From a virus: DNA of 47,072 nucleotides. The notes under the pieces were generated by a model that was not told the DNA's origin, searched no databases, and saw only the letters and a program-made list of their open reading frames with translations. The stretch lies in IMG/VR virus record IMGVR_UViG_3300010373_000013, positions 1-47,072 of that record, one strand, 5' to 3'. Every line of letters begins with the position of its first letter. Position 1 is the first letter of the stretch. A program made the position numbers and the translations under genes. Positions 19,199-42,638 of the stretch are shown one piece after another.

Positions 19199-20455
19199 AT
19201 GACATCCGCTATCATTATTAAAAACGATCGTCTACTATGTTGTCAACCACAAGTTGTTAAAAAATTTGGAAGATCAAGTGCTCAATTCATATCCCAATTA
19301 GATTATTGGCTTAAAAAGCCAAAATTAGGGGTTTGGCGGGAAGATAGACATTGGATTTTTAACTCTGCTGAAGAATTCGGCAATCAAATTTCCTTAAGCA
19401 AACCACAAACACAAAGAATTATTAAAAAGCTCAGAGATCTTAAAATTTTATTGGTGCGTAAATTTGGAAAATGGCATCGCGTTAATTATTATTCCATTGA
19501 TTATGAAATGCTCCAACAACTCGTGGGAGATAATGAATCCTCTCAAGAAGAATTACCAGTAGAAGAAAAAACCGAGGAACCTTCAAACGAAGTCGTAGCA
19601 ACGGATACAAATGACACTACATTGCATCATTCTGATGTAATCAATTACATAGATGACCCCCAAAATATTATTAATAACTCTAGTTATTTTTTTAATAAAT
19701 TAAAAAAAATAACTAGAGGTTATATATCCGCGCGCGCGCGCGAGGGGTTTGAGCCTCGCGCTTCGCTTCAAAACGGCCCTGAAAATGTTGATATCTCTTC
19801 TCCCACCGCGGAGATGTTTAAAATTTGGAAAGAAAACCTGGAGGAAAAGGCTCATGAGTTTTTGGATCACCAAACGGAAACCTTTTTGCTATCAGCCTTT
19901 AGGCATAAATTTGGTGAAGATTTGAACAATTGGAAATTCTATTGCCAAAAAATCAGATCGAGTTCATACCTAATGGGTGAGAACTTTCAACTATCGCTTT
20001 CCTGGGCACTCAAATGGGGAACCATAGATCGTATCCAGCGCGGTGAATTTGGGGTCGTCAGGGAGGCCGAAATGGCGAAAAAAAATGAAACGAGTCCTGC
20101 TAGTGGAAATGCAGTTACTCAATTCCAGATGGAATCGCTCATTAGACTTCTCCAGGAAGATGAAGAATTGAAGAAAATACGTCGTCATATCCTTCTTTTG
20201 GTAGGACCGGAAGAATATTATTCTTGGTTTCATCGAGGAGAATACACACGAGACGGGAAAAATGTTTATTTTACAACACCGAGTCATTTTGTAGCCGACA
20301 CGCTTGAAAATAAACGTTATCCTTTTATGCAGGAAAGAGAAGATTTACGATTTTTCCTTCAGTCTAAGGACAAGGAAAAATCTGTCGTTCCACAGGAGGA
20401 AAGAAAATATGAAATTATTGACGGAAAGAAATATGAAATTTTTGAAATTGGATAA
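19199..20455 (+). CDS. Replication initiator: winged-helix N terminus plus DnaA domain-I-like C terminus
   Basis: 418 residues, with AAGGA eight bases before the ATG. Residues about 25-105 look like a winged helix (AQFISQLDYWLKK, LSKPQTQRIIKKLRDLKILLVRKFGKWHRVNYYSID). Residues 105-205 are an acidic, low-complexity linker. Residues 304-377 (LLQEDEELKKIRRHILLLVGPEEYYSWF, then VYFTTPSHFVADTLENKRYPFM) match the layout of DnaA domain I, a helicase- or DnaA-contact module found in initiators of alphaproteobacterial plasmids and phages. It heads a plus-strand operon. Its task is probably origin binding and loading of host replication proteins. The DNA of the linker is unusual (see 19678-19742). No partition genes accompany it. 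Confidence 0.75.
   Translation: MTSAIIIKNDRLLCCQPQVVKKFGRSSAQFISQLDYWLKKPKLGVWREDRHWIFNSAEEFGNQISLSKPQTQRIIKKLRDLKILLVRKFGKWHRVNYYSIDYEMLQQLVGDNESSQEELPVEEKTEEPSNEVVATDTNDTTLHHSDVINYIDDPQNIINNSSYFFNKLKKITRGYISARAREGFEPRASLQNGPENVDISSPTAEMFKIWKENLEEKAHEFLDHQTETFLLSAFRHKFGEDLNNWKFYCQKIRSSSYLMGENFQLSLSWALKWGTIDRIQRGEFGVVREAEMAKKNETSPASGNAVTQFQMESLIRLLQEDEELKKIRRHILLLVGPEEYYSWFHRGEYTRDGKNVYFTTPSHFVADTLENKRYPFMQEREDLRFFLQSKDKEKSVVPQEERKYEIIDGKKYEIFEIG
19635..19650. repeat. Inverted repeat ATGTAAT-N2-ATTACAT inside the initiator gene
   Basis: Two 7-bp arms around a 2-bp centre, 28 bp before the larger AT-rich inverted repeat. Its sequence resembles the TGTAAATTTACA sites elsewhere. It may be an initiator or regulator site. 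Confidence 0.4.
19678..19742. repeat. AT-rich 16-bp inverted repeat followed by a (CG)7 tract: candidate origin
   Basis: Perfect arms at 19678-19693 and 19703-19718 around a 9-bp loop, all A/T except CTC/GAG ends, then TATATAT and seven CG steps (19729-19742) that could form Z-DNA. A shorter GC stem (GCGCGAGG/CCTCGCGC) follows. All lie in the linker codons (about 160-181) of the initiator, as the origin does inside lambda gene O. Alternatively it is an inserted palindromic element. Confidence 0.45.
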
Positions 20456-28684: not shown

Positions 28685-30313
28685 TTAATAATATGGGCGT
28701 TTAGTTTTCTTCCAGGCTTCTTCTTGAGGAGCGTCTCTTGGATCTTCTTTATTCATTAGCCATCCAGAACTGGTTAATCGTATAAAGGCTTGGCTTGTAC
28801 TATCAATAATATCATTGCTGGCATCATTGGGAAACAAAGAAGCCGCCTCTAAGAAGATCTGGGCTTCTTCAGTTAGATAACGACAATTAGGCGTGACGGT
28901 AGGTAACCATACTAAACCATTTTCCATTAAATGAGTTACCAAGCGACAGCGTCCTAGTTTATTTCCATAGGGATTAGGATTGAACTTTAATACAGGAATA
29001 TTGGTAGCCATTAAATCCTGTAAAAGAGAATAACCACTCACCTTTTGTTCAATCAAAATGTGATGTGGTTTATTGAATCCCACTATAGGATCATCAATAA
29101 GAGTATCTTCATAGTTGTTATAGAGACGTACTGCCATCTTACGTAATTCTGGGTATTCTAATTTCTCCCGAAATACACTCAGTAACATAAGATTCTTAAT
29201 ACCATTATCATCAAAGACTCCCCAGGTGGTACAGGCACTATAACAACTGGTGACGTTACTGGTTAAAGCAGTATCCCAGCTTTGAAGAATATATTCGAAG
29301 TCTGGGTAATCAGGTTCTTTCCACCATTTAAACCAATCCTTTTGAATGATACCTCCTCCTTCAGGACTTGGCCTTTGTTGTAGTTGTCCCGAAATCCTAT
29401 AAGAGTCATAGTTAAAGTCAGCCTTTAGATTCTTAAGTTCAGTATCTCCTATTCCGTCTGGCCACAATAAATCCCCTTCCTTTTCTCTCGGATCTTTCCA
29501 TACGAAATCATCATTAACGAGAGGAATGGTTGTACATCGTCTCGTTGATTCAAATTCCATAGGGAGACATAAATGAATCCAATCATCCAATTCTTTCGAT
29601 AAGATGTGCCCTGATAAATCCAATGTATGTGTTCTTTGTTGTGCTACAACCCACCTTGATGTCTTAAAGTTACAGACACGAGTTGACATAACATAATCCC
29701 ACCATTCATTGATACCCGTACGAATCACATCGCTTTCTACGTCTTTCACATTATTGGGGTCATCAGCTAAAATAAAGTCTCCACCCAATCCAGTGTTTGT
29801 ACCACCTGTAGAACTGGCAATACGATAACCCGCTTTGTTGTTATCAAAACGTAATTTGTTATTTACATCGGACATGAGGCTAAATTTATCTCCCCACAGA
29901 AACTTATACCAATCAGAGGTAATAAGACGTCTACACGCAACACTATCCCTTACAGATAGTGTTTGCGCATACGACGTATATAAGAAGCGTAGTTCTGGTT
30001 GTTTAACCCAACACCAGGCAGGAAAGAGTACACTAATGATATTGGACTTTCCTGTACGTGGAGGAAGGTTAATAAGGAGTTTTCTTATATCAATGTAATA
30101 GAGGGCCTCTAAGTGTTCACAAAGAACTTGAACATGCCAACCATCAATGAATTCTCTATTCTCTAAAACTTTCCAAGCATGTTTAACGAACTCATAGAAT
30201 GACTCTTCACAGTCTTCTTTAATGACTTGCCATTCCTCAGATAAGAGTGGAACGGTGTGAGTCTCTAGTTCTCGAATCTTTTTAAATTGTCTAAGGGAAG
30301 ATGAAAAACTCAA
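28685..30313 (-). CDS. terL: Terminase large subunit
   Basis: 542 residues. The ATPase is clear: Walker A PPRTGKS (84-90) and Walker B FILADD (180-185), with coupling segments between (LYTSYAQTLSVRDSVACRRLI). The RuvC-like nuclease follows: Asp in LQSWDTAL, Glu in ILIEQKVSGYSLLQDL, and Asp in NDIIDSTSQAF near the end. It packages DNA into the head through the portal. The frame has no ATG before these domains; TTG at 30313 is the only usual start and has no ribosome site, so the true start is uncertain. It is followed by the IS5-type domain gene and the portal unit. Confidence 0.95.
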   Translation of the reverse strand: MSFSSSLRQFKKIRELETHTVPLLSEEWQVIKEDCEESFYEFVKHAWKVLENREFIDGWHVQVLCEHLEALYYIDIRKLLINLPPRTGKSNIISVLFPAWCWVKQPELRFLYTSYAQTLSVRDSVACRRLITSDWYKFLWGDKFSLMSDVNNKLRFDNNKAGYRIASSTGGTNTGLGGDFILADDPNNVKDVESDVIRTGINEWWDYVMSTRVCNFKTSRWVVAQQRTHTLDLSGHILSKELDDWIHLCLPMEFESTRRCTTIPLVNDDFVWKDPREKEGDLLWPDGIGDTELKNLKADFNYDSYRISGQLQQRPSPEGGGIIQKDWFKWWKEPDYPDFEYILQSWDTALTSNVTSCYSACTTWGVFDDNGIKNLMLLSVFREKLEYPELRKMAVRLYNNYEDTLIDDPIVGFNKPHHILIEQKVSGYSLLQDLMATNIPVLKFNPNPYGNKLGRCRLVTHLMENGLVWLPTVTPNCRYLTEEAQIFLEAASLFPNDASNDIIDSTSQAFIRLTSSGWLMNKEDPRDAPQEEAWKKTKRPYY

Positions 30314-30383: not shown

Positions 30384-30587
30384 TCAAAAATAATCTATAT
30401 CAGTTAATGCATCAATTAAATAATCCTCAATATTGTCTATTCTTTCGCGTTCTTTCTCGTCCAAATCAGCATGTTTTAAAATTGATTTTAAATGTTCCAA
30501 AAAACATTCAACCACTCCTTTTAAATCAGAAGCTGCCAAATAGAGTTTCATTTCTTTTTTATCATCAGTCGCTATTGTGTATTTCAT
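30384..30587 (-). CDS. Small protein MKYTI-type, unknown
   Basis: 67 residues, with GGAG before the ATG. It begins MKYTIATDDKKEMKLYLA and continues as a Glu/Asp-rich helix. The first residues match the gene just upstream (30565-30732, MKYTITTDNKEKINLYL), so the two are tandem paralogues in their start region. It ends immediately before the inverted repeat upstream of terminase. Function unknown. Confidence 0.6.
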   Translation of the reverse strand: MKYTIATDDKKEMKLYLAASDLKGVVECFLEHLKSILKHADLDEKERERIDNIEDYLIDALTDIDYF

Positions 30588-30732
30588 TTAATCGCTCCAT
30601 TAACATTTTTCTAAAATCTTCTATCATTTTGAACTCTTCTTCATCCATGTCAGGGGGCTTTTCTATTGAATGAGGAGATATTAAATAAAGATTTATCTTT
30701 TCTTTATTATCAGTCGTTATTGTGTATTTCAT
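30565..30732 (-). CDS. Small nested MKYTI-type protein, unknown
   Basis: 55 residues. A strong site AAGGAG lies seven bases before the ATG at 30732. The start overlaps the end of the 161-residue gene by 23 bp, and its own end overlaps the next gene by 23 bp in the same way. It opens MKYTITTDNKEKINLYLI and ends NEIHNSD; the gene upstream ends NEIHNND. The overlap cassette is therefore duplicated. Product acidic and helical; function unknown. Confidence 0.55.
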   Translation of the reverse strand: MKYTITTDNKEKINLYLISPHSIEKPPDMDEEEFKMIEDFRKMLMERLNEIHNSD

Positions 30733-31195
30733 TTTCACGCTCCTTGTTCTTCTCTCTCACAAAATCTTCTAAATAATCAAGCATGGGATCAAAATTATCT
30801 GGATTTGGCTCCTCAGGTTTCTCCCCAATGATTTCTTCTATTCCAAATTTCAAAGATTGTATAAGAGTTTTTTTTCTCATTCTTTTTTTTGTTTCGTGGA
30901 GTTTTTCTATTTTTTCCACTAACTTGTGAATCTCTTTTTTTAAAAAAAATAGAAAATAATTTAAAGTCTGCCATTTATGTTTGTAGATGGATGAAGAACC
31001 TTGGATCTCTCGCATAATACTATTTAAATGATCATTTTCTGCTTTCGTAAGGTAAAATTGTTCATGAATCCATTGGATATATTCATCGCAAAAATTAGGA
31101 TCGTTTTTAACATTTTCAAATGCACTCAACGCCTTTCCAAAATTCACATCTCCATTATAACTATCCCATAAGGATCTAAATTCTTTTTCTCTCAT
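30710..31195 (-). CDS. Helical coiled-coil protein, unknown
   Basis: 161 residues, mostly helix, with a charged coiled coil near 85-115 (KKEIHKLVEKIEKLHETKKRMRKK). It begins MREKEFRSLW; the sequence before the ATG (gagaacgaaga) and the first codons repeat those of the gene at 31806. Its end overlaps the 55-residue gene. Function not recognised; part of the packed small-gene operon. Confidence 0.55.
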   Translation of the reverse strand: MREKEFRSLWDSYNGDVNFGKALSAFENVKNDPNFCDEYIQWIHEQFYLTKAENDHLNSIMREIQGSSSIYKHKWQTLNYFLFFLKKEIHKLVEKIEKLHETKKRMRKKTLIQSLKFGIEEIIGEKPEEPNPDNFDPMLDYLEDFVREKNKERENEIHNND

Positions 31196-31204
31196 TCTTC
31201 GTTC

Positions 31205-31525
31205 TCAAATTCCCGTGATATTTACTGTATTAATAGTATCGCTGACACCTCTTTCCTTCATAGGTTGCTGCCATGTGGGCAAAGAAGAAGGCATCTCATC
31301 ATATTTTTTCAAAATCATTTCATAACTACATCTCATCAAATGAGAATTCTTATCATCCTCTATTTCTTCCATCAAATGTCTACGTAAACTTCCCAAATTC
31401 CCTTCCCAATAACGAATGTTGGTTAATATATCCTCCGTTGATCTTTGATCAATTCTTTCTGGATTTTTCTTTAACCATTCAATAAATTCATCGGACAAAT
31501 GATCATAATAATTTAAATCTCTCAT
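31205..31525 (-). CDS. Small helical protein, unknown
   Basis: 106 residues, starting MRDLNYYDHLSDEFIEWLKKN; the MRDL start matches that of the gene upstream (MRDLDDSFETL). It is charged and helical, with no motif known to me. It starts by ATGA overlap with the alphaCTD-like gene at 31522-31806, so the two are translationally coupled. Function unknown. Confidence 0.55.
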   Translation of the reverse strand: MRDLNYYDHLSDEFIEWLKKNPERIDQRSTEDILTNIRYWEGNLGSLRRHLMEEIEDDKNSHLMRCSYEMILKKYDEMPSSLPTWQQPMKERGVSDTINTVNITGI

Positions 31526-31806
31526 AATTCTGTTTTAATATCAAAATCTACCCAATGATTTTTCTCAGTCACTTTAACAACTGCAGGAGGACCTGGAATA
31601 AAAGGAAATTTTCCTAAAACATCTCGAAGACGCCTCTCGCTTTTTGGACCTAAATAACGATGTGCAATCAATTTCCAGCCAGGGAACAAAAGTAATTGTC
31701 TTATTGTTATAATATTTTCTTTTTTAATCGCCTCTATAAGTCGAGTATCTAAGTACTTCTTTCGAGGTATAAAAAGTGTTTCAAAAGAATCATCTAAATC
31801 TCTCAT
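31522..31806 (-). CDS. Diverged RNA polymerase alphaCTD-like protein (third copy)
   Basis: 94 residues, starting by ATGA overlap with the 170-residue gene. Residues 20-65 (DTRLIEAIKKENIITIRQLLLF, then YLGPKSERRLRDVL) follow the helix-hairpin-helix layout of the alpha subunit C-terminal domain. Aligned by eye to E. coli alpha: Arg265 is kept (R22), Asn268 and Cys269 are replaced (E25, A26), and Gly296, Lys298 and Ser299 are kept (G53, K55, S56). The loss of Asn268 suggests weaker or changed DNA contact compared with the two other copies nearby. It probably regulates transcription; alternatively it is a generic helix-hairpin-helix DNA-binding protein. Confidence 0.5.
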   Translation of the reverse strand: MRDLDDSFETLFIPRKKYLDTRLIEAIKKENIITIRQLLLFPGWKLIAHRYLGPKSERRLRDVLGKFPFIPGPPAVVKVTEKNHWVDFDIKTEL

Positions 31807-32315
31807 TCTTCGTTCTCTTTTTTCTTAGAATCAGCCCATATATCACTAGAAGAGAAAGCAAAGGTAGCTCTAATATTCTTTAAAGTGAGTATCCTCTCTT
31901 CTTCATCTTCTTCAGAAGAATCCATCCAATCATTATATTCTTCTTCATGCCCTTCTATTAAAATCTCCTTAAGTGCAAAACAAATTTTAGAGTGGGTGTG
32001 CCCCATCAATAAACTCTCATTACTATCATCCTTATCATCCCTACCCCAATGTAATCGTTGTATTTCACGTAGAGATTCTATTAAATTACATAGCCATTCT
32101 TTTATGTTTTCATCACTTATATGCTCTATTTTTTTAACGGAACTGAGAGCTAACAAATAACCAGATAATTTGAGAAGACTATCGTAATTTCCTTCTTTCT
32201 CATAAAACTCAGTCCTTTCATTAAGAAATTTAATAAACTTCAAAGAACGTTTTCTAATTTCTTCAGGCGTCAAGGTATCAATCACGAACTTTTTGTATGC
32301 TTTTATTTTAGTCAT
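31803..32315 (-). CDS. Acidic helical protein, unknown
   Basis: 170 residues. It is helical, with a strongly acidic segment near 130-145 (DSSEEDEEERILTL). It overlaps both neighbours by ATGA. Repeated short Leu-rich helices (YDSLLKLSGYLLALSSVKKI) suggest a helical bundle. It sits between the coiled-coil gene and the third alphaCTD-like gene. No family recognised. Confidence 0.55.
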   Translation of the reverse strand: MTKIKAYKKFVIDTLTPEEIRKRSLKFIKFLNERTEFYEKEGNYDSLLKLSGYLLALSSVKKIEHISDENIKEWLCNLIESLREIQRLHWGRDDKDDSNESLLMGHTHSKICFALKEILIEGHEEEYNDWMDSSEEDEEERILTLKNIRATFAFSSSDIWADSKKKENEE

Positions 32316-32773
32316 GATTCTTTCTCTTTATTAATCGCTCTATGAACAGCTCTTGACCATATGAAATCAAACTGTTCATCCCGATTCATCTTCAGGTAAG
32401 TATCATTCTGCTTAATCAAATCTTTTACCCAATCTTCTCTTACTTGTTTGCGGACAAGTTCTTGAAGTTCCTTGGAAATAGCTTTGTTTACAATATTCTC
32501 AATCTTTTTAAGTTCAGGCTTACATATGTTAATGGCATCACTCGTTATATGTTTAGTAACCAAATCCTTTAGTTCTTTATTAACCGCCTCCCTTATTACC
32601 CATTCATTTTCTTTGGATAAAAGCTTCGATAAATTCTCAAACTGTTTCTTAATCAATATAGTTAATTCTTTTTCAATCATTAACTTTGCGATTGTTTCAT
32701 TTGAAGGAGATAAAGCTTTAGGAACTTGTTCTTTCTTTTTTTTCTCTTTAATCTTTTCAGTAAGGCCTTGCAT
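32312..32773 (-). CDS. Lys/Glu-rich helical protein, unknown
   Basis: 153 residues from the ATG at 32773, chosen because GGAG lies five bases before it; an earlier ATG (32806) would extend it by 11 residues without a ribosome site. It is almost wholly helical (KELTILIKKQFENLSKLLSKENEWVIREAVNKELKDLV; IVNKAISKELQELVRKQVREDW), with a repeated pattern of ELxxLVxKxI that suggests an internal duplication. It overlaps the end of the 269-residue alphaCTD-like gene by 17 bp. Function unknown. Confidence 0.55.
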   Translation of the reverse strand: MQGLTEKIKEKKKKEQVPKALSPSNETIAKLMIEKELTILIKKQFENLSKLLSKENEWVIREAVNKELKDLVTKHITSDAINICKPELKKIENIVNKAISKELQELVRKQVREDWVKDLIKQNDTYLKMNRDEQFDFIWSRAVHRAINKEKES

Positions 32774-33566
32774 GCCATCTCCATTCCATCTGCCTTTTAA
32801 ATCCATATGACTCTAATACTTCATTTAATCGGTCAAAACTTTTCTTGCCAAAATTAGGCATCCACCATAATTGTTTTTCTAATTCCTTTGGATCTTTCTT
32901 GAGTAAGTCTCTAATCGTCTCAAATCCGTCGTCCCTTAGACAATTAACAATTCGTATATCAGTAGGATTCTTTTGTAGTGTACGATCTCTATATATGGGA
33001 AATAGCATTCCAATAGGTTCATCGATCCCTACCCATCCTGAGGATTCCGAATATATCTTATTTTCCGTCACTTCCCCTTTCATTCCACCAATGACTATAT
33101 TCCTTCTTTCTCCTTTTAATTCCTCTTTTTGTTTTCTAGTTTCTTTATCATAATCAGAATGAAACTGCACCCAGTCTTCTTTTTTATTTATTATTTGTTC
33201 TAATTTATTTACAAGCTTTTCCACCTCTAATTTTTTTTTATTTTCTTCTTTTTCGTATTCGGGGTGAAGATCTAACCATACTCCCTTCAAAACATAATAT
33301 TTAATGACATCTTCACCAGGAGAAAATAGTTTTAACGCATTTACAACAAGACCATATAATATGCCATTACTTCTATCTCCTAAATATTCCATCAGTTCTT
33401 CAATAGTAGAGAATCTGTCTGCAAATAATCTCCATAAAAGGGTCTTATCCTCCAAAACGAACAGAATATTTAAATCAGAAGGAAGATCATTAATAGTCAC
33501 AACAATCTCCCACCAAGACGTATAACCTTTATATCGTTTGATGGTTATTTTTTCTTCCATATTCAT
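32757..33566 (-). CDS. RNA polymerase alphaCTD-like protein with N-terminal domain and coil
   Basis: 269 residues, starting by ATGA overlap. Three parts: an unknown N-terminal domain (1-105), a charged coil (105-165) resembling the 117-residue gene upstream (LVNKLEQIINKKEDW against LINKLEKIINNNDVY), and an alphaCTD-like domain (165-265) nearly matching the 112-residue protein. In RIVNCLRDDGFETIRDLL and MPNFGKKSFDRLNEVLESYGF the E. coli alpha DNA-contact residues line up: R265=R205, N268=N208, C269=C209, G296=G240, K298=K242, S299=S243; E302 is Arg (R246). It could bind UP-type AT-rich DNA or contact host sigma or activators. A role in taking over host RNA polymerase is inferred. Confidence 0.75.
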   Translation of the reverse strand: MNMEEKITIKRYKGYTSWWEIVVTINDLPSDLNILFVLEDKTLLWRLFADRFSTIEELMEYLGDRSNGILYGLVVNALKLFSPGEDVIKYYVLKGVWLDLHPEYEKEENKKKLEVEKLVNKLEQIINKKEDWVQFHSDYDKETRKQKEELKGERRNIVIGGMKGEVTENKIYSESSGWVGIDEPIGMLFPIYRDRTLQKNPTDIRIVNCLRDDGFETIRDLLKKDPKELEKQLWWMPNFGKKSFDRLNEVLESYGFKRQMEWRWHARPY

Positions 33567-33901
33567 TGCGAACCCATATATTTATTTTTTGGTTTTTCTT
33601 TTATTTTCCATCTCATATCCAAATTAAACCCATATAACGCTAATACTTCCTTTAATCGTTCTAAACTCTTTGGACCAAAATTATAGGTTGTCCATAATTG
33701 TTTTTCTAATTCCTTTGGATATTTCTTTAATAAGTCTCTAATAGTCTCAAATCCTTCATTCCTCAGACAATTAATAATCCGTAAATCTATACCATTTCTT
33801 TCTATTGGAATTTTTCTAAAGGTAGGAAATAACATATGTATAGGCTCGTCTACACTTATCCATCCTACGGATTCAGAATATATTTTATTTTCCATATCCA
33901 T
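33563..33901 (-). CDS. RNA polymerase alphaCTD-like protein (short form)
   Basis: 112 residues. An N-terminal leader (ENKIYSESVGWISVDEPIHMLFPTF) is shared with the 269-residue protein, then an alphaCTD-like domain: RIINCLRNEGFETIRDLL and YNFGPKSLERLKEVLALYGFNLDMRW. E. coli equivalents by eye: R265=R41, N268=N44, C269=C45, N294=N74, G296=G76, K298=K78, S299=S79, E302 replaced by R82. Even the end GFNLDMRW parallels GLSLGMRL of alpha. It lacks the alpha N-terminal assembly domain, so it cannot replace alpha but could act as a free DNA-binding or decoy domain. Coupled to the next gene by ATGA. Confidence 0.78.
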   Translation of the reverse strand: MDMENKIYSESVGWISVDEPIHMLFPTFRKIPIERNGIDLRIINCLRNEGFETIRDLLKKYPKELEKQLWTTYNFGPKSLERLKEVLALYGFNLDMRWKIKEKPKNKYMGSQ

Positions 33902-33904
33902 TGA

Positions 33905-34258
33905 TTATTCCTTTGAAATCATCTCTTTAACCAGACTTACAAGAAAGTCTAACAACTCAACTAACTTAATTTGTTCTTGCCGCTCATCCTCAAAAAGATC
34001 ATCCACTTTTGTTAAACTCTTTTTATAGGATTCTACTTTCTCATTTAAAACATTTAATTTCTTAGAATTGCTCAAGACTTTTTCCCTATAAACATCATTA
34101 TTATTTATTATCTTCTCTAACTTATTGATTAGATCTTCTGATAATACATTCGTCATACCTGCATAGTACTTAAGATGGTGTATATTATTGCGATACTCAC
34201 TAATTGCATCCAATAGATGGTGATGAATTTTACACCAAGCTTTCTCTTCTTCTGTCAT
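33905..34258 (-). CDS. Coiled-coil protein preceding the alphaCTD-like genes
   Basis: 117 residues, mostly coiled coil (LSEDLINKLEKIINNNDVYREKVLSNSKKLNVLNEKVESYKKSL). Part of it resembles the coil of the 269-residue alphaCTD-like protein. It lies three bases before the short alphaCTD-like gene, and its ribosome site AAGGA lies in the 3' arm of the hairpin at 34268-34309. It may dimerise with, or tether, the alphaCTD-like proteins; this is inference. Confidence 0.55.
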   Translation of the reverse strand: MTEEEKAWCKIHHHLLDAISEYRNNIHHLKYYAGMTNVLSEDLINKLEKIINNNDVYREKVLSNSKKLNVLNEKVESYKKSLTKVDDLFEDERQEQIKLVELLDFLVSLVKEMISKE

Positions 34259-34340: not shown

Positions 34341-34901
34341 CTAATGAGATGAGTGATTAAAGGTAAGTATCTTCTTCTTATCTTCAGACATCTTAATAAG
34401 TTCAGCTAATATAGGTTCTAAAGCTGCTTCTTTGAATATCTTCTTATCCTTTAACAAAGCCATAAGCATATTAGCAGCTCCAGGTGCTAACTTATTCATA
34501 ATGACACATCGAATAACAATACTAGAGAAGGCATCCATACCATCAAAGCTATCCAATTGATCTAATGCCCTCAATTCATCTAAATCATGACCATAGTATT
34601 GATTATCCATGTCATGCCATATACGAGCAGCTTGGGTACTATCTTTAAAGACAGCTTGCTTCCATAAAGCATCCATGACTGTTCTAATTTTCTCTTCCCT
34701 TGATATATTGAGATGGTCCTCTTCTTTACATAACTCAGGGGATAGACCTTTTTCCAAAAGAGTAGCTTTATTCACTGTACCCTTTGTTCTCCCTGATCCA
34801 GGTGTCTTAGGTAAACCTACAGGTCTTCCCTTCTTCTTCCTTACCTTCTCAGGCTTCTCAGCCATCTTAAGTATATAATCACCAATCTTAATTTCAGACA
34901 T
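34341..34901 (-). CDS. Possible small terminase / DNA-binding phage protein
   Basis: 186 residues from the ATG at 34901, preferred because AGGTGG lies eight bases before it; a GTG four codons earlier is possible. Near residue 25 comes KKKGRPVGLPKTPGSGRTKGTVNKATLLE, the Lys/Gly/Arg-rich pattern that opens many small-terminase-like or DNA-binding phage proteins. A helical part follows (REEKIRTVMDALWKQAVFKDSTQAARIWHDM), ending with ILAELIKMSEDKKK. In other phages this kind of protein precedes the large terminase; here the alphaCTD cluster lies between. Assignment tentative. Confidence 0.45.
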   Translation of the reverse strand: MSEIKIGDYILKMAEKPEKVRKKKGRPVGLPKTPGSGRTKGTVNKATLLEKGLSPELCKEEDHLNISREEKIRTVMDALWKQAVFKDSTQAARIWHDMDNQYYGHDLDELRALDQLDSFDGMDAFSSIVIRCVIMNKLAPGAANMLMALLKDKKIFKEAALEPILAELIKMSEDKKKILTFNHSSH

Positions 34902-34913
34902 ATCACCAACCAC

Positions 34914-36106: not shown

Positions 36107-36640
36107 TTATTCACTATGCAATGTCTGATATCGTATTAACTCAGCGTTAAAAGCTTTAAAAAACATAAAACAATCTTTATGATATACATCATATGTAACT
36201 GTAAAATTCTTGATTTGTGATTCGGGTGCCATCACGATCGAATAAGTTTCAGTTTCAGTTTTTTTATCGCGAGAGATTTGGATATACTCCATACATTCAA
36301 ATGGCATTTTTACAAGCTCATTCTCTCGAGAATCCCCGTAAATATTTCCTCTAAATAATCCAAGATCCGTTAATATAATAAAACGAGCATCAACTCTCCT
36401 AAAGGAGGGACATATGGCTGGAGTAATAATATTCATCCTCTTTATCTTGTGATCTTTAAAGGTTGTACGAAAAAGATCGAGTAAAGGTTCTTTTAGTTTA
36501 TCTAATTCTTTTTTTGTAAAAAAAGCGAGATGATAAGGAGGAAATTTAAAAATTTTGTTTACTAATTTTCTAAGGATTTTTTCATGTGTAGATAACTTAA
36601 AACGCCCACGAATAACATTATCTGTTTTAGAGGTTGACAT
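36107..36640 (-). CDS. First gene of the leftward operon, possibly PH-like
   Basis: 177 residues, with AGGA before the ATG. The N terminus is basic and helical (THEKILRKLVNKIFKFPPYHLAFFTKKELDKLKEPLLDLFR), then a beta-rich half (RFIILTDLGLFRGNIYG, PFECMEYIQISRDKKTETETYSIVMAPESQIKNFTVTYD) ending in a helix (CFMFFKAFNAELIRYQ). This order resembles bacterial PH-like domains, a weak structural guess. The TTGACA of the opposing promoter overlaps its first codons. Confidence 0.5.
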   Translation of the reverse strand: MSTSKTDNVIRGRFKLSTHEKILRKLVNKIFKFPPYHLAFFTKKELDKLKEPLLDLFRTTFKDHKIKRMNIITPAICPSFRRVDARFIILTDLGLFRGNIYGDSRENELVKMPFECMEYIQISRDKKTETETYSIVMAPESQIKNFTVTYDVYHKDCFMFFKAFNAELIRYQTLHSE

Positions 36641-36661
36641 AATGTATTTCCTATTTATAAT
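36634..36661 (+). promoter_or_regulatory. Consensus sigma70 promoter, rightward
   Basis: TTGACA (36634-36639), 16-bp spacer, TATAAT (36656-36661): both hexamers perfect. The start point would be near 36668, giving a leader of about 33 nt before the gene at 36701. It faces the leftward promoter at 36673-36701. Confidence 0.8.
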
Positions 36662-40220: not shown

Positions 40221-40967
40221 ATGTTTATTATGAGTGAAAAAATAGATGAATTAGTCAAGGCGTTATGTTCTCTGCAAAACAGCTTACCAAAATTAACAAA
40301 AGAATCTAAAGGGTATGCTCACAAATATGCAGATTTAACAACATGTTTGGAAGCCATACGCGAACCATTACGGGATAATGGATTCGCGTTGACTCATATC
40401 GTCACTATAGAAGAAGGACAAACCATTTTAGCAACCTTTCTTCTCCATACGAGCGGACAATGGATGAAAGCCTCTTTTCCGCTACATGCGGATATGGTTG
40501 ACATGAAAAATAAAATACAAGCATTCGGTTCTGTCATTACTTATGCAAGGCGTTATTCATTAACAGCCATGATTGGACTCACCCAAGAAGATGATGATGG
40601 CACTAAAGGAGGTACTATTTACTCGCCTCCATCTAAATCTATGGCCTTAAGTGGCGTAGATTTTTCCAATATGAAAGGAAAATTTGTCAAAGATTCAACA
40701 AGTATTTATCCCAATAAACCTACCATCAAAGAAAATGATTATGAGGAAAACAAATCGAAGAAATTAGTCGTAGAACTGCGTCTTCTTTGTGAAGAATACA
40801 ACATTGATATGAATGATTTCGCAGCCTTTCATAAAATCCAGTCCAAAAACATTTTGATGATGGAAAATATCATTAAAAATTTCATGGAGTTTTATGACTC
40901 CTATAAATTGGCTAAATTAGCGCAAGCACCTGCCTGGGATGTTCAAAAGGAAAAGGTTCAAATATGA
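40221..40967 (+). CDS. erf: ERF-family single-strand annealing protein
   Basis: 248 residues, with AAAGG before the ATG (a second ATG three codons on is possible). The ERF core is clear: KIDELVKALCSLQNSLPKLTKESKGY..KYADLTTCLEAIREPLRDNGFALTHIV, then GQTILATFLLHTSGQWMKASFPL and NKIQAFGSVITYARRYSLTAMIGLTQEDDDG. The C terminus is helical. It anneals complementary single strands in phage recombination and end repair, with SSB coded next door and the DUF1064 nuclease nearby. It overlaps the next gene by ATGA. Confidence 0.92.
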   Translation: MFIMSEKIDELVKALCSLQNSLPKLTKESKGYAHKYADLTTCLEAIREPLRDNGFALTHIVTIEEGQTILATFLLHTSGQWMKASFPLHADMVDMKNKIQAFGSVITYARRYSLTAMIGLTQEDDDGTKGGTIYSPPSKSMALSGVDFSNMKGKFVKDSTSIYPNKPTIKENDYEENKSKKLVVELRLLCEEYNIDMNDFAAFHKIQSKNILMMENIIKNFMEFYDSYKLAKLAQAPAWDVQKEKVQI

Positions 40968-41398
40968 GTGATCGTATCTCTATTGAAATACAGAGGGTGG
41001 GTCAGCAGACCATAGATGTAGGGAAGCAAGCGGTATTTATTGGTAATATCAATAAGAGAAATCATCTTATCTATAATGAACGTGAAATGATGGATCATGT
41101 TGTAGAATTTGCCAATAAAAAAGGAGGACATATTTTTTTAGGTATGCATCCTGATTTGAAAACGGTAGAAGGAATTATAGACCCTTATAAATGCGCTCAA
41201 CGACTTGTTGAAAGAATTGAATCTTTTATTGATCCACATGTAAGCGCAAAATTGAGTATCGTCCCTCATAAGGATACCCATATCATTCATTTAATGGTTT
41301 ATCCAAGTCGATCAGGCCCTCATTTCTTTTCCAAGAATTATAGATCTGAAAAATTTGCAGATGCTTTATATCATCAAACTAAAGGAATAACCCAATGA
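40964..41398 (+). CDS. Schlafen AlbA_2-like protein
   Basis: 144 residues, coupled to erf by ATGA. The pattern NEREMMDHVVEFANKKGGHIFLGMHPDLKTVEGIIDPYKCAQRLVERIESFIDPHVSAKLSIVPHKDTHIIHLMVYPSRSGPHFF follows the AlbA_2 (AAA_4/Schlafen) domain: a helix with FAN..GG..FLG, then a nucleotide-like turn, helices and SRSGPHF. The usual N-terminal EFK motif is not obvious, and no helicase or other domain follows. AlbA_2 proteins bind nucleic acid and some cut tRNA. Here, next to erf, DNA metabolism or defence against host responses are both possible. Confidence 0.65.
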   Translation: MSDRISIEIQRVGQQTIDVGKQAVFIGNINKRNHLIYNEREMMDHVVEFANKKGGHIFLGMHPDLKTVEGIIDPYKCAQRLVERIESFIDPHVSAKLSIVPHKDTHIIHLMVYPSRSGPHFFSKNYRSEKFADALYHQTKGITQ

Positions 41399-42559: not shown

Positions 42560-42566
42560 GGATGGC
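42541..42566. repeat. 7-bp inverted repeat at the tRNA 3' end
   Basis: GCCATCC (42541-42547) and GGATGGC (42560-42566) pair around the stop codon of the RHH-like gene; the right arm includes the tRNA 3' CCA. No T run follows on either strand, so terminator function is not supported. It may assist tRNA 3' processing. Confidence 0.4.
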
Positions 42567-42638
42567 TCCCCGCGACGGGCTCGAACCGCCGACCCAATGG
42601 TTAACAGCCATTTGCTCTACCGACTGAGCTAGCGGGGA
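42563..42638 (-). tRNA. tRNA-Asn (GTT anticodon), CCA encoded
   Basis: 76 nt cloverleaf: acceptor TCCCCGC/GCGGGGA, D stem GCTC/GAGC, anticodon stem AATGG/CCATT with loop CTGTTAA, T stem GGCGG/CCGTC with TTCGAGC loop, discriminator G and genomic CCA. Its 5' end directly touches the TAG of the 735-residue gene (42639), so it is probably cut from that long transcript. It may serve codon supply or be a relic of an attachment site; no integrase is present. Confidence 0.96.

What the first reader, a model, noticed from the sequence alone, without database searches (positions are those of the whole stretch)
31522..34258. A phage cluster of three RNA polymerase alphaCTD-like proteins with the DNA-contact residues kept
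The 269-, 112- and 94-residue proteins share the fold pattern of the alpha C-terminal domain. In the first two, the E. coli 265-determinant residues R265, N268, C269, G296, K298 and S299 all line up; only E302 is changed, to Arg in both. None has the alpha N-terminal domain, so they cannot build polymerase; they look like free domains that could occupy UP elements, compete with host alpha at activators, or be delivered to late promoters. A tandem set with graded loss (the third lacks N268) suggests split roles. I know of no described phage system of this form.
Basis: partly seen in the sequence, partly recalled or inferred. Interest (0 to 1): 0.85.

Follow-up and report, generated by a model that had tools for sequence, protein, structure and literature searches.

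The report
Phage free-standing RNA polymerase alphaCTD proteins
This bacterial virus carries two clear copies and one eroded copy of the DNA-gripping tail of the host's RNA polymerase alpha subunit, without the rest of the subunit, and similar stand-alone tails turn up in more than fifty other phage contigs, which suggests that phages repeatedly steal this piece to interfere with host gene expression.

Summary
The 112-aa and 269-aa proteins match Pfam PF03118 (RNA polymerase alphaCTD) above the curated cut-off; their best solved-structure relatives are RNA polymerase alpha, not helix-hairpin-helix repair proteins. The 94-aa protein is below the cut-off, but 0 of 20,000 shuffles reach its score, and it is a diverged paralogue. 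R265, N268, C269, G296, K298 and S299 are kept in the first two, and E302 is Arg in all three.

The form is not unique. Three sibling phages (terminase 78, 68 and 44% identical) each carry one free alphaCTD, in other genome positions. Two scans on different motifs found 51 virus contigs with an alphaCTD and no alphaNTD. A cultured phage, Goe8, has one at both genome ends, annotated 'RNA polymerase subunit alpha'. In these relatives the DNA-binding face is nearly invariant, and the domains group with rpoA of different bacterial groups, as if captured repeatedly; some are fused to sigma region 4.

Most likely: host-derived DNA-binding modules that occupy AT-rich promoter DNA and modulate host sigma70 transcription. 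Function, direction of effect and host are unshown. I found no paper describing the class.

The parts
33563..33901 (-). 112-aa protein: free alphaCTD with a 35-aa N-terminal block
   Evidence: PF03118 37.7 bits, over cut-off; best solved-structure hits are RNAP alpha
33638..33814 (-). alphaCTD domain of the 112-aa protein
   Evidence: PF03118 positions 12-66, 37.8 bits; R265, N268, C269, N294, G296, K298, S299 kept, E302 is Arg
32757..33566 (-). 269-aa protein: about 165 aa of unknown N-terminal part (low-confidence model), then the same block and alphaCTD
   Evidence: PF03118 35.4 bits; C-terminal 101 aa 62% identical to the 112-aa protein; model pLDDT about 75-88 over the alphaCTD helices and below 50 over residues 1-137
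32811..32957 (-). alphaCTD domain of the 269-aa protein
   Evidence: PF03118 positions 22-66, 37.7 bits
31522..31806 (-). 94-aa protein: eroded alphaCTD paralogue
   Evidence: PF03118 15.1 bits, below cut-off; BLASTP 36% over 55 aa to the 112-aa protein, E 2.8e-4; 0 of 20,000 shuffles reach its 16.0 bits
31615..31746 (-). alphaCTD-like domain of the 94-aa protein
   Evidence: PF03118 positions 22-65, 15 bits; R265, G296, K298, S299 kept; N268 Glu, C269 Ala, N294 Tyr, E302 Arg
33788..33892 (-). shared block ENKIYSES.GW...DEPI.MLFP in the 112-aa protein (second copy about 32961-33065 in the 269-aa gene)
   Evidence: alignment A2
31803..32315 (-). 170-aa ORF between the 269-aa and 94-aa genes; not alphaCTD
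   Evidence: no curated Pfam match; -0.5 bits with the alphaCTD profile
32312..32806 (-). 164-aa ORF between the 269-aa and 94-aa genes; not alphaCTD
   Evidence: no match over a curated cut-off; 1.7 bits with the alphaCTD profile
33905..34258 (-). 117-aa ORF at the head of the cluster; not alphaCTD
   Evidence: no match over a curated cut-off; 0.6 bits with the alphaCTD profile
34341..34913 (-). probable small terminase gene upstream of the cluster
   Evidence: homologous to L021:5095-5529, just upstream of that phage's TerL; assignment inferred from position, no family match
28685..30313 (-). large terminase (TerL) downstream of the cluster
   Evidence: phrog_38, E 8e-77
36634..36661 (+). 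perfect sigma70-type promoter TTGACA-N16-TATAAT between the divergent operons
   Evidence: only exact match in the window, 0.08 expected

Best explanation
The phage acquired the 3' part of a host rpoA gene (alphaCTD without alphaNTD), duplicated it and let the copies diverge. The proteins are probably DNA-binding modulators of host sigma70 RNA polymerase: they bind AT-rich upstream (UP-like) DNA through the 265 face but are not tethered to polymerase. In sibling phages the domain keeps the 265 and 261 residues and most 287 residues, so it could pose as host alphaCTD towards DNA, sigma region 4 and activators. In this phage the 261 patch is gone and E302 is reversed to Arg, so the likeliest action is occupying or re-specifying UP-type DNA, as a dominant-negative competitor at UP-dependent host promoters (for example rRNA) or as a DNA anchor for the 269-aa protein's extra domain. 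Shown by sequence: domain identity, no alphaNTD, paralogy, purifying selection, recurrence. Inferred: DNA binding, competition, direction of effect. My odds: alphaCTD identity 0.95 (94-aa copy 0.85), DNA-binding transcription modulator 0.65, competitor or occluder specifically 0.35.
For: PF03118 over cut-off; rpoA models are the NCBIfam matches to both proteins; solved-structure hits are RNAP alpha. Siblings L004 (86 bits), L021 (89 bits) and G008 (73 bits) each carry one free alphaCTD. 51 contigs from two scans on different motifs, no alphaNTD in any flank while control rpoA loci ring. Counted only where a scan did not select for it: R265 16/16, N268 14/16, N294 15/16, G296 16/16, K298 13/16 plus 2 Arg, S299 15/16, E302 16/16. 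The window paralogues evolve under constraint, dN/dS about 0.26-0.43. Some phage domains are fused to sigma region 4 or HTH domains; of ten neighbours tested most are DNA polymerase, helicase, RecT or exonuclease genes; in Goe8 the gene occurs at both genome ends. Host-type promoters lie at the divergent early region and no phage RNA polymerase or sigma was found. The alphaCTD is a known phage target: T4 Alt/Mod, G1 gp67 and LUZ19 Rac (PMC7552054).
Against: No binding or expression data. E302 contributes to DNA binding in E. coli (own knowledge) and is Arg here, though Glu in 16/16 relatives tallied. The 261 patch is absent, so a sigma contact is unlikely. The genes lie between the terminase genes in the probable late operon, not an obvious place for early host shut-off. 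Fold searches gave no support, with poor models. Purified alphaCTD binds DNA weakly (own knowledge).
Confidence: 0.45

Rival explanations
1. The domains are activator-like adaptors for the phage's own genes: bound to AT-rich DNA at phage promoters, they recruit host RNAP through other surfaces (extra domains, or a bridge to sigma), raising phage transcription.
For: Sigma-region-4/alphaCTD and HTH/alphaCTD fusions in other phages; intact 261 patch in siblings; the window genes sit in the probable late operon; the 269-aa protein has a large extra N-terminal part.
Against: The window copies lack the 261 patch; no sigma-like domain in the window proteins; no conserved UP-like motif was demonstrated at phage promoters.
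Confidence: 0.3
2. Decoy: the free alphaCTD protects phage transcription from host or rival factors that act on alphaCTD (ADP-ribosyltransferases, proteases, regulators) by soaking them up.
For: Several phages attack alphaCTD (PMC7552054); two sibling copies are 72-79% identical to alphaproteobacterial alphaCTD, as a decoy should be.
Against: The window copies are only about 45% identical to bacterial alphaCTD; the strongest conservation across the class is on the DNA face.
Confidence: 0.1
3. The helix-hairpin-helix-like domain has been repurposed for something outside transcription (DNA packaging, recombination or nuclease recruitment); its location between TerS and TerL reflects that.
For: Position between the terminase genes in the window and near TerS in L021; Ruegeria phage V16 fuses an alphaCTD to a pyrophosphatase-family domain; many homologues neighbour replication genes.
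Against: Position is not conserved: near the ERF gene in L004, opposite strand to TerL in G008. DNA-face residues specific to alphaCTD are kept.
Confidence: 0.12
4. Spurious similarity to generic HhH proteins, or host DNA contamination.
For: The alphaCTD is itself an HhH-like fold (own knowledge); the third protein is below the Pfam cut-off; some public 'phage' records carry full rpoA operons.
Against: Solved-structure hits are RNAP alpha; no alphaNTD in the window or the relatives; siblings carry them in phage context; the three window copies form a clade (support 0.92).
Confidence: 0.03

Closest known systems
C-terminal domain of bacterial RNA polymerase alpha subunit (RpoA; PF03118)
   Same: Same domain by profile; most of the 265 DNA-contact determinant kept.
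   Different: No alphaNTD and no linker to polymerase; 261 patch lost, E302R, 4-residue insertion between helices 2 and 3 in two copies; three paralogues.
Bacillus phage vB_BmeM-Goe8 gp005 ('RNA polymerase subunit alpha', YP_009849950.1)
   Same: A phage protein ending in a free alphaCTD (78 bits) without alphaNTD.
   Different: Firmicutes-type domain with an intact IEELDLSIR segment; one gene, present at both genome ends; unrelated N-terminal part of about 145 aa.
Free alphaCTD genes of sibling phages (L004:1347-1769, L021:4001-4411, L131:1258-1683)
   Same: Same phage group by terminase; alphaCTD without alphaNTD.
   Different: One copy each; L004 and L021 copies 72-79% identical to alphaproteobacterial rpoA, L131 about 52% to gammaproteobacterial rpoA; 261 segment kept; other genome positions.
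Phage factors that act on host alphaCTD: T4 Alt/ModA/ModB, LUZ19 Rac, phage G1 gp67 (PMC7552054)
   Same: Would act at the same point, alphaCTD-dependent promoters.
   Different: They modify, cleave or block host alphaCTD; none is itself an alphaCTD.

Membership tests
PF03118 RNA_pol_A_CTD | Profile score above the curated cut-off (23.8 bits), 112-aa and 269-aa proteins | tested here: met
   112 aa 37.7 bits, 269 aa 35.4 bits
PF03118 RNA_pol_A_CTD | Same, for the 94-aa protein | tested here: not met
   15.1 bits; kept as a paralogue only on shuffle and BLASTP evidence
alphaCTD 265 (DNA-binding) determinant | R265, N268, C269, G296, K298, S299, E302 | tested here: inconclusive
   6 of 7 kept in the 112-aa and 269-aa proteins, 4 of 7 in the 94-aa protein; E302 is Arg in all three
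alphaCTD 261 (sigma-contact) determinant | Acidic D259/E261 patch | tested here: not met
   No aligned counterpart in the profile alignment
RNA polymerase alpha subunit (RpoA) | alphaNTD for dimerisation and assembly | tested here: not met
   No alphaNTD hit in six frames of the window; control rpoA loci ring
alphaCTD fold | Four short helices in the alphaCTD arrangement | tested here: inconclusive
   269-aa model has helices 201-212, 218-222, 226-235, 241-253 at pLDDT about 75-88, but whole-model fold searches gave no significant match; 94-aa model unusable (pLDDT 54)
Generic HhH repair proteins (rival) | Better match to HhH families than to RNAP alpha | tested here: not met
   No HhH family in Pfam at E up to 1; solved-structure hits are RNAP alpha
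UP-element binder | Binds AT-rich upstream promoter DNA | not testable with these tools
   Needs gel shift or footprint

The most novel reading that the evidence does not exclude
Phages of several bacterial groups have repeatedly captured the host rpoA C-terminal domain and use it, free or fused to sigma region 4 or HTH domains, as a class of host-takeover transcription regulator that has not been described as such; the window phage has diversified it into a tandem set with altered contact surfaces.
Probability: 0.5. Interest if true: 0.78.

Novelty: new variant of a known kind. Interest (0 to 1): 0.62.

Why it matters
The alphaCTD decides how strongly many bacterial promoters fire, above all rRNA promoters, and several phages are known to attack it. 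A phage that makes its own free copies would be a different strategy. The class is testable at once: natural variants with and without the sigma-contact patch, with E302R, and fused to sigma region 4 separate DNA binding from polymerase contact, and one lies in a cultured Bacillus megaterium phage.

Tried and rejected
Single-sequence model of the 94-aa protein: pLDDT 54, unusable. Fold searches with both models (PDB, BFVD): no significant match, attributed to poor models, not counted for or against. Direct virus-contig scans with the 112-aa protein and with alignment A2 found no relative. A genome scan with TerL for a host or prophage found only a distant Halanaerobiaceae contig, so the host is inferred only as probably alphaproteobacterial from SSB, the nearest TerL and sibling alphaCTDs. 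'Phages'-collection hits that proved to be full rpoA genes beside ribosomal genes were set aside; other unannotated hits were not checked. PHROGs gave no family for the window proteins or the L004 one. Literature searches found no description of free alphaCTDs in phages; most subscription papers are not held. Considered and dropped: polymerase assembly by these proteins (no alphaNTD).
Full report
OBSERVATION. The window is a virus record of 47,072 bases. The three ORFs exist as described. PF03118 is matched above its cut-off by the 112-aa (37.7 bits) and 269-aa (35.4 bits) proteins and below it by the 94-aa protein (15.1 bits). NCBIfam's matches to the first two are rpoA models. In the solved-structure library the 112-aa protein's leading hits are RNA polymerase alpha chains (best 4e-7), and all 41 hits of the 269-aa protein are. 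A profile made only from E. coli and other phages' domains scores the three proteins 46.1, 45.1 and 16.0 bits; the next window protein scores 6.1, and none of 20,000 shuffles of the 94-aa protein reaches 16.0. So the third is most likely a real but eroded member.

RESIDUES. R265, N268, C269, N294, G296, K298 and S299 are kept in the first two; E302 is Arg in all three. The 94-aa copy keeps R265, G296, K298, S299 and has lost N268, C269 and N294. The acidic 261 patch (D259, E261), which in E. coli contacts sigma region 4 (own knowledge), has no aligned counterpart. The 112- and 269-aa proteins also share a 35-residue block before the domain and a four-residue insertion between helices 2 and 3. 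They are 62% identical over 101 residues with dN/dS about 0.43 (NG86) or 0.26 (YN00): functional paralogues rather than decaying debris.

GENOME CONTEXT. The cluster lies between a probable TerS (34341-34913) and TerL (28685-30313, phrog_38), on the strand of the structural genes; several neighbouring ORFs in it overlap by a few bases. The early side (SSB, ERF) is read mostly the other way. An exact TTGACA-N16-TATAAT promoter lies in the divergent gap, and L004 has TTGACA-N16-TATGAT at the corresponding place (read). No RNA polymerase or sigma factor was found among the window proteins searched, so the phage probably depends on host sigma70 polymerase. The host is probably an alphaproteobacterium (SSB; TerL nearest Roseobacter phage CRP-901 at 43%; sibling domains closest to alphaproteobacterial rpoA), but is not identified.

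SIBLINGS. Phage L004 (TerL 78% identical) has a 140-aa free alphaCTD scoring 86 bits, near its ERF gene. L021 (TerL 68% over the part held) has a 136-aa one upstream of TerS. G008 (TerL 44%) has one on the strand opposite to TerL. Other TerL relatives of similar length (G006, 54 kb; G014, 44.5 kb) have none. The trait is common in the nearest relatives but is not fixed in position.

THE CLASS. Two virus-contig scans on different motifs (alphaCTD residues about 258-272, and about 275-300) returned 30 and 28 loci, 51 distinct contigs by my count. All encode short ORFs (99-297 aa) with an alphaCTD; three (L024, L030, L047) run off the contig's 5' end. A six-frame alphaNTD search of all these flanks found nothing, while two control rpoA loci scored over 340 bits. 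Ten neighbouring genes were tested with PHROGs: most are DNA polymerase, helicase, RecT, exonuclease and the like. Four of ten tested proteins carry sigma-70 region 4 and others HTH domains beside the alphaCTD. In halves of the domain that a scan did not select for, R265 (16/16), N268 (14/16), N294 (15/16), G296 (16/16), S299 (15/16) and E302 (16/16) are conserved, which suggests that DNA binding is the property under selection. In a tree the phage domains interleave with alphaproteobacterial, gammaproteobacterial, Bacteroidetes and Bacillus rpoA, consistent with repeated capture; the window trio is one clade (0.92), but the domain is short and most supports are modest. Cultured examples are Bacillus phage Goe8 gp005, annotated 'RNA polymerase subunit alpha', whose gene occurs at both genome ends, and Ruegeria phage V16 gp23, an alphaCTD ahead of a pyrophosphatase-family domain.

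MECHANISM. Shown: host-type alphaCTD, no alphaNTD, tandem paralogy, purifying selection, recurrence with the DNA face kept. Inferred: free DNA-binding domains that act on UP-type DNA at host sigma70 promoters. Sibling copies could pose as host alphaCTD towards DNA, sigma and activators. The window copies have lost the sigma patch and carry Arg at 302, so simple competition for sigma is unlikely; occupation or re-specification of AT-rich DNA is the best reading, at modest confidence. That phages target the alphaCTD is established: T4 ADP-ribosyltransferases, gp67 of phage G1, Rac of LUZ19 (PMC7552054).

NOVELTY. A database annotation of one phage copy exists (Goe8), and PF03118 is well known, but eight searches of the held literature found no description of free phage alphaCTDs. 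The library lacks most subscription papers, so absence is weak evidence. The tandem, diverged set in one phage is a new variant.

LIMITS. Fold comparison failed for lack of good models. Whether bacteria also carry free alphaCTD genes outside phages was not tested. The contigs may be fragments. The first scan selects for an intact 261 segment, so its frequency there is biased.

Noticed in passing
L021:6406-7251: The large terminase reading of this sibling phage runs into an intein-like segment (CFPYSTKVMTAQGSIPIGM...CTPDHPIFVKGKG) after about residue 183.
   Followed up: no
L009:4971-5837 (Ruegeria phage V16 gp23): An N-terminal alphaCTD-like domain (41-44 bits) precedes a pyrophosphatase-family domain, a fusion not recorded in the annotation.
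   Followed up: partly
L039:3308-4201, L041:3602-4267, L029:1255-1980, L010:4365-5363: Phage proteins that combine sigma-70 region 4, in some cases with a Cro/C1 or other HTH domain, with an alphaCTD: both promoter-recognition parts of host RNAP in one small protein.
   Followed up: partly
L170:1959-2591 (Bacillus phage Goe8 gp005): The free alphaCTD gene occurs at both ends of the genome (2397 and 156544), so it appears to lie in the terminal repeat, where related SPO1-like phages keep host-takeover genes (own knowledge).
   Followed up: partly
window 30384-30587 and 30565-30738: Two small overlapping ORFs are paralogues (34% over 64 aa, E 5e-7), another duplication in the same operon.
   Followed up: no
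window 40964-41398: A 144-aa protein with a Schlafen AlbA_2 domain (42.6 bits) directly after the ERF gene.
   Followed up: no
window 19199-20455: A 418-aa protein on the opposite strand within the structural region has a weak DnaA N-terminal domain match (20.4 bits, below cut-off).
   Followed up: no
window 42563-42638: A tRNA-Asn (GTT) gene lies between the early + strand genes and the large - strand genes.
   Followed up: no
L008, L011, L012 (MT835508, MT839982, MT839913): Public 'Bacteriophage sp.' records from human faeces that carry full rpoA with ribosomal protein genes, apparently bacterial contamination.
   Followed up: partly
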